A program made the translations under genes and the position numbers. The notes under the pieces are model-generated. The model saw only the letters and a list, made by a program, of their open reading frames with translations. It searched no databases and was not told where the DNA came from. From contig JAUSIH010000029.1 in NCBI GenBank assembly GCA_030648205.1, positions 1 through 49,089 on the forward strand: a stretch of DNA of 49,089 nt. Reading direction: 5' to 3'. The first letter of the stretch is position 1. The number at the start of each line of letters is the position of its first letter. Below are positions 44,532 to 48,703 of the stretch, piece after piece. The DNA is from Dehalococcoidia bacterium. Its GTDB lineage: Bacteria > Chloroflexota > Dehalococcoidia > JAUSIH01.

Positions 44532-44584
44532 CGCGCCCTCCGTTGTCTTGCCGTTTCTCCACCGCCGGTGTAGCATGTGAAGCC

Positions 44585-45286
44585 ATGCGCGTCACACCCT
44601 GGTTCGTCGTCATTACCTCCGTGTTCATCACCACGCTGATCACCGCCAACATCATCGCGGTGAAGCTCATCAGCGTGTTCGGCCTCGTCCTTCCGGCGGC
44701 CATCATCATCTTCCCCATCAGCTACATATTCGGCGACGTGCTCACCGAGGTGTACGGGTACTCGCGGGCGCGCATAGTCATCTGGCTGGGGTTCTTCTGC
44801 AACCTGCTGGCGGTAGCGGGCATCATGGTCGGCCAGGTATTGCCCCCGGCGAGCTTCTGGGCGGACGCCCAGCCCGCCTACGAGCGCATCCTGGGCTACG
44901 CCCCGCGACTGCTGCTCGCGTCCTTCCTCGGCTACCTGGTCGGCTCCTTCGCCAACTCCATGGTCATGGCCAAGATGAAGGTCTGGACCAGGGGACGTTT
45001 CCTGTGGACGCGGACCATCGGCTCCACGCTGGTCGGCGAGGGCCTGGACACGCTGGTATTCATCACCGTGGCGTTCTCCGGCGTCCTCCCCGGCGCGCAG
45101 ATGGCGACCACCATCGTCACCCACTGGCTGCTGAAATCCGTGTACGAGGCGGCGGTCACTCCCCTGACCTACGTCGTCGTCCGAGCGCTGAAGCGGGCCG
45201 AGGGGCAGGACGTGTACGACGACAGGACCAACCTCAACCCGCTGGCCGTGTTCGCATCCGGCGGGCGCGGGACTGAATCCCCCTAG
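44585..45286 (+). CDS. yhhQ: Queuosine precursor transporter (YhhQ family)
   Basis: This 233-residue, six-helix membrane protein of the VUT/YhhQ family imports 7-deazaguanine precursors for queuosine in tRNA. Family pattern: TTLITANIIAVKLISVFGLV, ISYIFGDVLTEVYGYSRARI, VGSFANSMVMAKMKVWTRGR, and FLWTRTIGSTLVGEGLDTLV. I prefer ATG 44585 to the GTG-type start at 44543, because the conserved part begins there. It is followed after 60 bp by the thioredoxin-like gene. Confidence 0.92.
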   Translation: MRVTPWFVVITSVFITTLITANIIAVKLISVFGLVLPAAIIIFPISYIFGDVLTEVYGYSRARIVIWLGFFCNLLAVAGIMVGQVLPPASFWADAQPAYERILGYAPRLLLASFLGYLVGSFANSMVMAKMKVWTRGRFLWTRTIGSTLVGEGLDTLVFITVAFSGVLPGAQMATTIVTHWLLKSVYEAAVTPLTYVVVRALKRAEGQDVYDDRTNLNPLAVFASGGRGTESP

Positions 45287-45346
45287 CGGCGCGCCGCATC
45301 CAACCACCGACAGGGCAGTCAGCCCATAGCACGCAAGGAGTATCTC

Positions 45347-45835
45347 GTGTCGTTCCTCAACCACTACTCGTTCGCGCTCGCCGGCGCCGTCCTTCTGCTG
45401 GGCGTCGGCTACGCGCTCCTGCAGAACGGCGTTCTGCCGTGGAAGGTGGCTGTGCTGGCGGCGCTGACCGCCGCGCTGGTGGCCATCCCGCTGACGCTCC
45501 GCACCGCACCAACGGCCCCGGACTCACCCGCCGCCGTGGAGGCGACGCTGCGGAGCGGCCAGCCGACCGTCGTCGAGTTCTACTCGAACTTCTGACTGGT
45601 GTGCATGAGGAGCAAGCCCGTCGTGGATGGGCTGGAGCGAGACCTGGCCTCCCATGCGCGCGTGCTGCGCCTGGACATCCTCAGCCCCACGGGCCAGGCG
45701 ATGGCGCAGTCCCGCAACGTGGAGCTGGTGCCCACGTTTCTGGTCATTGACGGGCGGGGACGCGAGACGGCGCGCTTCAGCGGCCCGGACACGGAGGGCG
45801 TCACGCGGGCGGTGCGACAGCTTCCCGCGTCGTAG
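45347..45835 (+). CDS. Membrane-anchored thioredoxin-like selenoprotein with UxxC motif
   Basis: The gene reads from GTG 45347 (AAGGAG 6 nt upstream) through one in-frame TGA at 45593-45595 to TAG at 45835, giving 162 residues with selenocysteine at 83. Two hydrophobic segments (8-25 and 32-50) anchor it. The thioredoxin domain runs PTVVEFYSNF-U-LVC-MRSKP, then LVPTFLVID with the cis-Pro. TGA stands exactly where the first redox Cys of CxxC belongs, and both sides are thioredoxin-like. A SECIS-like hairpin follows. A caller would give two pieces, ending at 45595 and starting at 45605. Sequencing error or a dead gene are the alternatives. Confidence 0.82.
45615..45633 (+). promoter_or_regulatory. 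Candidate SECIS hairpin of the thioredoxin-like gene
   Basis: AGCCC pairs with GGGCT (5 bp) around GTCGTGGAT. The loop begins with G, 24 nt after the TGA. Known bacterial SECIS elements have a G near the start of the apical loop, about 16-37 nt after UGA. The fit is good, though the stem is short. Confidence 0.6.
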
Positions 45836-45962
45836 CGCCGCCATCTTGCCGTAAACGCTGGACAGAGGGGCCGGACTCTTCACAGTTTGGCCCCTCACTC
45901 TCCCAAAGCCAGAAAAGCCATGAATGCTGGCGTTGGACCGAGCAAGTGCTTCCCAGTTCGCG

Positions 45963-46904
45963 CTATATGAGTGGCGGAAACTGCGTGGTGCTGACCGGCT
46001 TTCCCATGTACCAAAAACATGATCGCAGTTTAGTTGCAACGGTTGGTTTGGTGTTGCTGACGAAGAGATAACCGGCGTGGGAAGCAGATACCAGACACGC
46101 TAGCTCCGCGGGTTTCGCTCTATCCATCCTAGTGGAGTTTGCCTGGAAAAGAGTCCCTAATTTGCTAACCAGTGGTGCAAGGTCTTCATCAGTGCTAACG
46201 AGATAGATGGCCATGTCGGCTCCCAGAATGTTGACACGCCTCAGAAATGCTTCAAGCTCCTTGTCAATGACCTCCGACATATCTTCTATGCATTCAATAT
46301 AACAAAGCCTCGAACCGGATAATGCGATAACATCAAAACTGCCATCGGGGACACCTTTCAACTTGACCCCCCACTCTGCTGGGATCGAGAAGGCCTTCCT
46401 CAGAGTTGCAGCTACATCACATGCAAACCTATTCGGCCCGTCACTCCTAGCCTCAAAAACCACCCCTTTTTGTTTCAACAAGGACTCGACAGGCGAACCG
46501 AGGAGACGAGACTGTATCTCTTCAGGACTCATTACTTGAGTTGTCTTTCCCATTCTGATGAAAGACTTCCCATAAGACTGATATAGCGTGTTATGCATAT
46601 CTGGTACTATTTGTGCAGCGAGCACAGTATTGCCCCCACTCTCCACTTGAAACAGGAAGGGAGCCAATGGTGGTTTGGTGTTCTGACGGATCGTGTTAGC
46701 AAAAACTTCGATTCCCTTTTTCCCCAGTTGCACCCCACAAATGTGCCCATCATTTGTGACCCCAATGAGCACTGTCCCGCCGACCGCATGCACAAATGCA
46801 CACAGCGCCTCAATAGCTTGTTTCGTCTCTTTAAGACTTTCCTTGAACTCCAATTGCTGTCCCTCACCTTGCTTGATGAGAGCTAGCAACTCTTCCTGAG
46901 TCAT
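45963..46904 (-). CDS. AlbA_2 (Schlafen-like) domain protein
   Basis: This protein has an N-terminal AlbA_2/Schlafen AAA-4 type domain: EGQQLEFKESLKETKQAIEA, then LCAFVHAVGGTVLIGVTNDG, ICGVQLGKKGIEVFANTIRQ, and KSFIRMGKTTQVMSPEEIQS. The C-terminal half (from about 165) is not recognised. It has strands such as YIECIEDMSEVIDKELEAFL resembling a small nuclease-like fold, but this is weak. The gene is far more AT-rich than its surroundings and was probably acquired. The ATG at 46904 is chosen for GGGGGA upstream. Such domains occur in regulators and in phage defence, but the role here is unknown. Confidence 0.75.
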   Translation of the reverse strand: MTQEELLALIKQGEGQQLEFKESLKETKQAIEALCAFVHAVGGTVLIGVTNDGHICGVQLGKKGIEVFANTIRQNTKPPLAPFLFQVESGGNTVLAAQIVPDMHNTLYQSYGKSFIRMGKTTQVMSPEEIQSRLLGSPVESLLKQKGVVFEARSDGPNRFACDVAATLRKAFSIPAEWGVKLKGVPDGSFDVIALSGSRLCYIECIEDMSEVIDKELEAFLRRVNILGADMAIYLVSTDEDLAPLVSKLGTLFQANSTRMDRAKPAELACLVSASHAGYLFVSNTKPTVATKLRSCFWYMGKPVSTTQFPPLI

Positions 46905-46987: not shown

Positions 46988-48703
46988 CTACTTCTTGCGG
47001 TTCTTGAAATCGTACACGGACGCGGCGGGCGTGCCATCCTTGAACGCGATAGGCCGCGTCGTCGGAATGGTCGGGTCGCCGAAGGTGGGCAGGAACTGCC
47101 CGTGCGCGCCCACGGCGCCGATGACCACCACCATGATGTCGTCCGGCTTGTCCGTGATGGACATGAAGGCGTCGTGCACGTCCCAGCCGAACTTCGGCCG
47201 GCGCAGTTGGTAGTGCGGCACCTCCAGCCTGTGGAGATCGCCCAGCGAGATGTGCGCGTTGTCGTACATGTACTTCTGCACGTCCGCCCTGCTGTACCCC
47301 AGCCGCGAGACGATCTGCGCGTGGCCGGGGTTCATCACCAGCACCGCGGTGCCCGCGTGGAACGCGTTGTTCGTCGCGAAGGCCGACATGGCGTTGGCGG
47401 CCACGCTCAGGAAGCTCTCGCCCGTGCCGTCCCATACCACGAAGTTGTGCTCCGCCTGCACGCCGACCACCGTGACGGCGCTGACCTCCTTCTTGAGGCC
47501 GCGGCTCACGTGGAGCGGCTCCCAGGGACTCTCCTCCTCATTCTCCCCGGCGCAGAATGTGAACTTGGCGGGATGCCCATGAATGGCCTTGTCCGTCGTG
47601 CCCGGCATGCCGCCGCCGATGTTCACCAGCATCAGACGAATCGCCCTGCCGAGGGTGGCGTTGGCCTGCCATCCGGGGCCGAACGCGCCGAAGCTGTAGT
47701 TGACTTTCAGCTCGTTGCGCACCGGTCCGTTGACGATGAGCAGGGGCGCCACCGGATTCGTCGTCGCCTGCAGCGCGAAGAGGTTGAACTGCGGGTCGCC
47801 GAGCGCTTCGACGGCGGCGACGAGCACCGGCATGTACTCCGGCAGGCAGCCCGCCATCACCGCGTTCACCGCGATCTTTTCCGGAGTCGCCTTGCCCCAG
47901 CGGGGCGCCAGCTTGACGATTGTCTCGTCCCGCTTCCGGTCGGTGAACTGGAGCATCTCCTCCACCAGTTCCTCCGTCGGCGGGATGATGGGCAGACCGT
48001 CCGTCCATCCGCGCTCGTAGAAAGCAGCGGTGGCCTCCCGCGCGTTGGCCCGTGACTTCACCTTCTCCTGGGTGGGCATCACCCGTGGGCGGGAGAGCTT
48101 CTGCTCCACTTCCTCGATATTGTTCTTGGAGCGGAACTCTTCGATAAGCTTCTCCCGGGGCGTGGTCAGGACTCGCACGATCTCGTCAATGAGCTTGTCC
48201 GCCGCTTCCTCGATCTGCTTGTCGGAGAGGCCGAACAGCTCGTGCGGGATGGAGACGATGGGCAGCGAGGGGACGCCCATGTGACGGGCCTCGGCGCGGC
48301 CCAGGACGTTGAAGCCGGTGGAGCATATGGTGGCCGTGGGCTTGCCCAGCTTCTCGACGGTGGTAGTGTCAACGACAGTCCATGTCGTGCAGCCCCCTCA
48401 GATGCCCAGGCCGTCTATGACGAAGTCCGCCTCCTTCGCTATCTCCTCCAGGCCCGGCGCCTTGCTGCTGGAGCGGCGCTTGCGCGCATGCAGCACCTTG
48501 GAGAAGTTGTAGCGCTCCAGCAGGCGCTTCTCCACCTGTCCCAGGAAGACATTCGCGCCCTCCTTGCCGTTGTCCACGATGGCGGCCACCTTGCCGTTCA
48601 GCGTGGTCAGACGCGGCGCCAGCCCGATGTCAAGCTGGTCTGTCTCCGCGATAGGGTTCATGAGGTCTATAACCTGTGCCTGGGTCTTCAGCTCTCCGGA
48701 CAT
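46988..48703 (-). CDS. UGSC-family selenoprotein (in-frame UGA)
   Basis: From ATG 48703 (AAAGGAGG upstream) the frame runs through one TGA at 48400-48398 to the stop at 46988, giving 571 residues with selenocysteine at 102. Around it the protein reads DFVIDGLGI-U-GGC-TTWTVVDTTTVEKLG, the pattern of UGSC-type (seleno)proteins, here U-G-G-C with Cys105. ATICSTGFNVLGRAEARHMG and LPIVSIPHELFG follow, continuous with the fold. The C-terminal domain (about 190-571, TDGLPIIPPTEELVEEML onward) is of unknown function. A SECIS-like hairpin follows the TGA. Callers would give a 101-residue piece and a 430-residue piece starting at 48280. Confidence 0.87.
48372..48388 (-). promoter_or_regulatory. Candidate SECIS hairpin of the UGSC gene
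   Basis: On the minus strand ACGACA pairs with TGTCGT (6 bp, perfect) around TGGAC. The loop has G at its second position and begins 15-16 nt after the TGA, at the lower edge of the range known for bacterial SECIS elements. Confidence 0.7.

What the first reader, a model, noticed from the sequence alone, without database searches (positions are those of the whole stretch)
45347..45835. Thioredoxin-like membrane protein with UxxC made by UGA read-through
TGA falls exactly at the first cysteine of the redox motif (FYSNF-U-LVC), with a thioredoxin strand before it and a cis-Pro strand (VPTFLVID) after it in the same frame. A 5-bp SECIS-like hairpin with G at the loop start lies 24 nt downstream. 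It lies only about 2.6 kb from the UGSC gene's TGA, so two independent genes support selenocysteine use. UGA is an ordinary stop for ffh-neighbour, recF, TusA and MetE-like genes, so the code is not reassigned.
Basis: partly seen in the sequence, partly recalled or inferred. Interest (0 to 1): 0.85.

Follow-up and report, generated by a model that had tools for sequence, protein, structure and literature searches.

The report
Membrane-anchored selenocysteine thioredoxin
The apparent stop codon inside this bacterial gene is a selenocysteine codon: the gene makes a membrane-anchored thioredoxin with selenium at its active site, one of a widespread set of such proteins in the Chloroflexota that ordinary annotation would cut in two.

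Summary
The finding is right. The TGA at 45593-45595 sits exactly where thioredoxins carry their attacking cysteine (FYSNF-U-LVC). About 50 distinct relatives from many Chloroflexota families have TGA at the same codon, 16 have Cys, and none has TAA or TAG. On a tree, Sec and Cys swap at least 10 times. The TGA is followed by an 8-bp hairpin with loop GUG, 27 nt downstream. In TGA forms it is kept by compensatory changes: 6.94 of 8 pairs against 5.15 in synonymous-codon shuffles, z 13.7. In Cys forms it is at background: 4.00 against 4.07. The genome carries selA, selB, tRNA-Sec and a selD that itself has an in-frame TGA at its active site. The protein is modelled with high confidence as two membrane helices plus a thioredoxin domain. 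Seleno-thioredoxins with UxxC are a known class, so this is a new member, of a subfamily with no specific NCBIfam model. Relatives with UxxS motifs, and one with UxxU, are the less ordinary by-products.

The parts
45335..45340 (+). Ribosome-binding site AAGGAG, 6 nt before the GTG start
   Evidence: Read in the sequence
45347..45835 (+). Selenoprotein gene: membrane-anchored thioredoxin, 162 aa with Sec at residue 83, TAG stop at 45833-45835
45368..45499 (+). Two predicted transmembrane helices (residues 8-26 and 31-51)
   Evidence: Hydropathy and AlphaFold2 model, mean pLDDT 95
45527..45817 (+). Thioredoxin domain, about residues 61-157, containing the U-L-V-C motif and cis-Pro129
45593..45595 (+). 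UGA codon read as selenocysteine (residue 83)
   Evidence: TGA/TGC/TGT alternation across relatives, never TAA/TAG; Sec machinery in the genome
45602..45604 (+). TGC, resolving cysteine Cys86 of the UxxC motif
   Evidence: Sequence; Cys in most relatives, Ser in two clades
45615..45633 (+). bSECIS hairpin: 8-bp stem, loop GUG, loop 27 nt after the UGA
   Evidence: Covariation in 45 TGA relatives, absent from Cys relatives; covariance model 46.6 bits (the window is one of the sequences it was built from)
46988..48703 (-). Second selenoprotein gene in the window: UGSC-family protein with a long C-terminal extension; TGA at 48398-48400, motif GI-U-GGC, own hairpin ACGACA-UGGAC-UGUCGU
44543..45286 (+). 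Upstream gene on the same strand, 60 nt away: queuosine precursor transporter (TIGR00697/Vut_1); co-transcription possible, no functional link shown

Best explanation
The gene encodes a selenoprotein. When the ribosome meets the UGA at 45593, SelB carrying Sec-tRNA-Sec is recruited by the hairpin just downstream (45615-45633), and selenocysteine is inserted at residue 83 instead of termination. The product is a small thioredoxin held in the membrane by two N-terminal helices. Its selenolate (Sec83) attacks disulfides of partner proteins and is released as a selenenyl-sulfide by Cys86, as in other UxxC thioredoxins. The thioredoxin domain most likely faces outwards and acts as a disulfide reductase or oxidoreductase for envelope proteins. 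Shown: position of the UGA, Sec/Cys alternation, conserved hairpin, Sec machinery, predicted fold. Inferred: the incorporation itself, the direction the domain faces, the redox chemistry. Unknown: substrate and electron donor.
For: Homologues: 52 distinct loci with TGA and 16 with TGC/TGT at the same codon, none with TAA/TAG, with protein similarity continuing on both sides. At least 10 Sec/Cys changes on a tree built with that column masked. Hairpin: 89.7% of pairs formed in 45 TGA relatives, 45 cells changed on both sides, covariation score 0.359 against 0.169 shuffled (0 of 500); one pair is A-U in 21 and G-C in 21 sequences. Pairs exceed synonymous-codon shuffles in TGA forms (z 13.7, 0 of 1000) but not in Cys forms (z -0.3). 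Machinery in the same genome: SelB 351 bits, tRNA-Sec with anticodon TCA, SelA 564 bits, SelD 366 bits with its own in-frame TGA at the active site. Fold: mean pLDDT 95.3, pTM 0.88, two membrane helices plus a thioredoxin domain, matching solved thioredoxins at TM about 0.8. Facing: the inter-helix loop carries 61 K/R against 11 D/E over the two-helix group; distant relatives have lipoprotein-like signal peptides.
Against: No protein or read data. The window's own hairpin is not unusual when folded alone. SelB occurs in 311 of 400 sampled genomes of the phylum, so its presence is a weak test. The segment after the second helix is also net positive (44 K/R, 18 D/E), so the outward orientation is not secure. 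One genome with a TGA form (G217, 86% complete) shows neither SelB nor SelA. The nearest relatives are only about 40% identical.
Confidence: 0.93

Rival explanations
1. The TGA is a genuine stop or a sequencing or assembly error in a Cys-type thioredoxin gene (TGC or TGT), or the gene is a decayed pseudogene.
For: The window is a contig of a draft assembly in 120 pieces, and TGA differs from TGC/TGT by one base.
Against: TGA stands at the same codon in 52 distinct loci of many families, several in one-contig genomes, and never TAA/TAG. The coding frame and domain continue after it. The hairpin is kept only with TGA.
Confidence: 0.02
2. UGA is reassigned to an amino acid in this organism (for example Trp, as in table 4, or Gly), so the read-through is a code change and not selenocysteine.
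For: The frame is open if TGA is read as a residue.
Against: Among the tRNA candidates examined, the only one with anticodon TCA is tRNA-Sec. Genes in the window end in TGA. The homologous residue is Cys, not Trp or Gly, in the other relatives.
Confidence: 0.01
3. The UGA is read as cysteine (or leaks at low level) in this branch and the hairpin only enhances read-through, without selenium.
For: Sec machinery can misincorporate Cys when selenium is scarce (general knowledge); function would survive, as Cys relatives exist.
Against: SelA, SelB, SelD and tRNA-Sec are all present, and three genes of the genome keep TGA with bSECIS-type hairpins.
Confidence: 0.03
4. The thioredoxin domain faces the cytoplasm and serves as an ordinary cytosolic reductant merely held at the membrane (still a selenoprotein).
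For: The stretch after helix 2 is net positive (44 K/R, 18 D/E), as expected of an inner-side segment.
Against: The loop between the helices is more strongly positive (61 to 11), the N-terminus is neutral, and one-helix and lipoprotein-like relatives place the same domain outside.
Confidence: 0.25

Closest known systems
Thioredoxin (Trx) selenoproteins, PF00085, UxxC
   Same: Same domain, same UxxC motif with Sec at the first position, listed as experimentally verified in prokaryotes (PMC13188914, Table 1).
   Different: This one has two N-terminal membrane helices and an FYSNF-U-x-x-C context; it scores only 33 bits against NCBI's thioredoxin equivalog cut-off of 97.
Trx-like 3 selenoproteins (cd02950, UxxC) of the Global Ocean Sampling survey
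   Same: UxxC thioredoxin-like proteins, 212 Sec and 183 Cys forms in marine metagenomes (PMC2398784, Table 2). From memory, cd02950 is the TxlA/HCF164 family of membrane-anchored thioredoxins, which would fit.
Thiol:disulfide interchange protein (PF13098) and TlpA-type selenoproteins
   Same: Membrane or envelope thioredoxin domains with Sec in UxxC or UGC motifs (PMC13188914).
   Different: PF13098 is matched below its cut-off (18.5 against 27 bits); there is no DsbD-type multi-helix membrane domain.

Membership tests
Bacterial selenoprotein | In-frame UGA aligned with a redox Cys of homologues | tested here: met
   52 TGA and 16 TGC/TGT loci at residue 83
Bacterial selenoprotein | Downstream hairpin of the bSECIS model: 3-9 nt loop, 4-16 bp stem, G in the first two loop positions, loop 16-37 nt after UGA, MFE at or below -7.5 kcal/mol (PMC13188914, Fig. 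2) | tested here: met
   Loop GUG, 8 bp, 27 nt, -12.5 kcal/mol
Bacterial selenoprotein | Hairpin under selection, not by chance | tested here: met
   Compensatory changes and synonymous-codon control; absent from Cys forms
Bacterial selenoprotein | Sec machinery in the same genome | tested here: met
   selA, selB, selD, tRNA-Sec
Bacterial selenoprotein | Selenium in the purified protein | not testable with these tools
   Needs mass spectrometry or 75Se labelling
Thioredoxin family (PF00085) | Score over Pfam cut-off, thioredoxin fold, redox motif before helix, cis-Pro | tested here: met
   34.4 against 23.5 bits; fold; P129 invariant
NCBIfam thioredoxin equivalog TIGR01068 | Score over 96.8 bits | tested here: not met
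   33.2 bits
Trx-like 3 / TxlA (cd02950) selenoproteins | Sequence similarity to the published Trx-like 3 sequences | not testable with these tools
   Sequences and CDD models not available
UGSC family (neighbouring gene) | Match to PF24696/NF041046 across the TGA, with U at the motif | tested here: met
   Pfam 130.8 bits against 25; NCBIfam 112.3 bits, just under its 125 cut-off; motif U-G-G-C rather than U-G-S-C

The most novel reading that the evidence does not exclude
The family is an unlisted, phylum-wide set of membrane-anchored seleno-thioredoxins in Chloroflexota. It has repeatedly lost the resolving cysteine (UxxS, in two clades) and once appears with both redox cysteines replaced (U-I-P-U), so that these act as one-selenol or diselenide thioredoxins at the cell surface.
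Probability: 0.35. Interest if true: 0.55.

Novelty: new member of a known kind. Interest (0 to 1): 0.42.

Why it matters
Standard gene calling would end this gene at the UGA, so a widespread family of membrane redox proteins in a large, mostly uncultured phylum is probably truncated or missing in the databases. The family offers a clean natural series (UxxC, CxxC, UxxS, UxxU) for testing why selenium is kept or lost at one site, with the hairpin decaying to background once Sec is lost.

Tried and rejected
Folding the window's hairpin alone: no signal, so single-sequence stability was dropped as evidence. Presence of SelB as a co-occurrence test: too common in the phylum (311 of 400) to discriminate. 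Searching the genome with the family's hairpin model for further selenoproteins: the second-best hit (C13:14353) is judged a chance match outside any plausible selenoprotein frame. Conserved gene neighbours: methyltransferase genes next to several loci of one family, an AhpC/TSA redoxin upstream of one Cys form, an ECF sigma factor next to another; nothing constant, so no function was drawn from context. Rfam search of the window: no hits. Papers on selenoproteins in Chloroflexota, SAR202 or TxlA: none found that describes this family, judged from titles and abstracts. Laying the whole genome in the Python box and two family-search calls failed; they were redone in another form or not needed.

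Full report
What was checked. The window was read at 44900-46100, and the frame 45347-45835 is open apart from one TGA at 45593-45595, codon 83. A good ribosome-binding site (AAGGAG, 45335-45340) stands 6 nt before the GTG start. Read through, the protein matches Pfam Thioredoxin over the curated cut-off from residue 68 to 150, and the TGA takes the place of the first cysteine of the CxxC motif. Two numbers need correcting: the hairpin has 8 pairs rather than 5, and the UGSC gene's TGA (48398-48400, minus strand) is 2.8 kb away.

Homologues. The nearest named relatives are five Chloroflexota genomes: four have TGA and one has TGC at the very codon. A search of 400 genomes of the phylum gave many more. 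In all, 52 distinct loci have TGA, 16 have TGC or TGT, and none has TAA or TAG at that codon. On a tree of 67 proteins with the column masked, the state changes at least 10 times. Cys and Sec forms are mixed within groups, which is the usual picture for selenoprotein families. Because the TGA recurs in independently assembled genomes, sequencing error is excluded for practical purposes. The nearest relatives are only about 40% identical, so the protein-level conservation past the TGA is also strong evidence that the downstream part is translated.

The SECIS element. The bSECIS model asks for a 3-9 nt loop, a 4-16 bp stem, G in the first two loop positions, a loop 16-37 nt after the UGA and at most -7.5 kcal/mol (PMC13188914). 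The window has AGCCCGUC-GUG-GAUGGGCU, 8 bp with one G-U pair, 27 nt after the UGA, -12.5 kcal/mol. Folded alone, the region is no more stable than shuffles, and 4-5% of synonymous versions do as well, so this sequence alone would not convince. Across 45 TGA relatives 89.7% of the pair cells are standard pairs, with 45 cells changed on both sides. The covariation score is 0.359 against 0.169 in shuffles, with 0 of 500 as high, and sliding the partner by one column destroys it. One pair is A-U in 21 sequences and G-C in 21. With the protein held fixed and synonymous codons redrawn, TGA forms have 6.94 of 8 pairs against 5.15 expected (z 13.7, 0 of 1000); Cys forms have 4.00 against 4.07. The hairpin therefore goes with Sec and not with the protein sequence. 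A few Cys forms (L023, L073, L076, L078) still show 6 or 7 pairs, which could be recent loss of Sec or chance. One distant TGA form (L082) lacks the hairpin at this register.

Machinery. The same genome (2.69 Mb, 95% complete) has SelB (351 bits), tRNA-Sec with anticodon TCA, SelA (564 bits) and SelD (366 bits). SelD itself has an in-frame TGA in its active-site motif G-U-AAK. Of 48 genomes holding a TGA form, 43 have SelB above the cut-off; of the other five, four have SelA. SelB is common in the phylum (311 of 400), so this agreement is necessary but weak evidence. The genome of the Cys relative L017 has neither SelA nor SelB. UGA remains a stop elsewhere: the delta-prime and amino-acid-kinase genes of the window end in TGA.

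What the protein is. AlphaFold2 with the 46-sequence alignment gives mean pLDDT 95.3, two N-terminal helices (8-26, 31-51) and a thioredoxin domain, which matches solved thioredoxins at TM about 0.8 over about 100 residues. Cis-Pro129 and position 83 are the only invariant columns. The loop between the helices is rich in Lys and Arg across the two-helix group (61 against 11 acidic), which suggests that the loop is inside and the thioredoxin domain outside. The stretch after helix 2 is also somewhat positive, so this is inference. One-helix relatives and lipoprotein-like relatives carry the same domain, which supports an envelope location. The most likely role is disulfide reduction or exchange at the outer face of the membrane, with Sec83 attacking and Cys86 resolving. 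Partner and electron source are unknown, and gene neighbours did not help.

The neighbouring UGSC gene. Read through its TGA, 46988-48703 on the minus strand gives a 571-residue protein whose residues 14-180 match the UGSC family at 130.8 bits, with motif GI-U-GGC and a 6-bp hairpin with loop UGGAC. With SelD, this makes three likely selenoprotein genes in the genome.

Known or new. Thioredoxins with UxxC are a listed, experimentally verified selenoprotein family, and Trx-like 3 of the ocean survey may be the same subfamily (PMC13188914, PMC2398784). No NCBIfam model covers this protein over its cut-off, and no paper found in the held library describes such a family in Chloroflexota. It is best filed as a new member of a known kind. 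The less ordinary points are the UxxS paralogues in two clades, in one of them in tandem with a UxxC copy, and one relative with UGA at both redox positions (U-I-P-U).

Noticed in passing
L027:2277-2738, L042:1082-1564, L043:847-1329, L044:2249-2731; L053, L065, L074: Paralogues that keep Sec but have Ser in place of the resolving Cys (UxxS), in two separate clades; the first set lies in tandem with a UxxC copy and has a weaker hairpin (4 outer pairs). L027's copy also loses similarity halfway, as by a frameshift.
   Followed up: partly
L089:634-645: Lipoprotein-like relative with TGA at both redox positions (U-I-P-U), which would make a diselenide thioredoxin; the hairpin is kept and the frame continues as a thioredoxin domain.
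   Followed up: partly
L098 (G000:C53:41321-42244): The genome's SelD is itself a likely selenoprotein: TGA in the active-site motif G-U-AAK, followed by a possible hairpin GGACCU-GGUCG-AGGUCC.
   Followed up: partly
window 46988-48703, minus strand: UGSC selenoprotein fused to a C-terminal region of about 390 residues with no Pfam match.
   Followed up: partly
L079-L087: More distant group of Sec thioredoxins, most with lipoprotein-like signal peptides and the same hairpin after the TGA, in several Chloroflexota families.
   Followed up: partly
window 44543-45286: Queuosine precursor transporter gene 60 nt upstream on the same strand.
   Followed up: no
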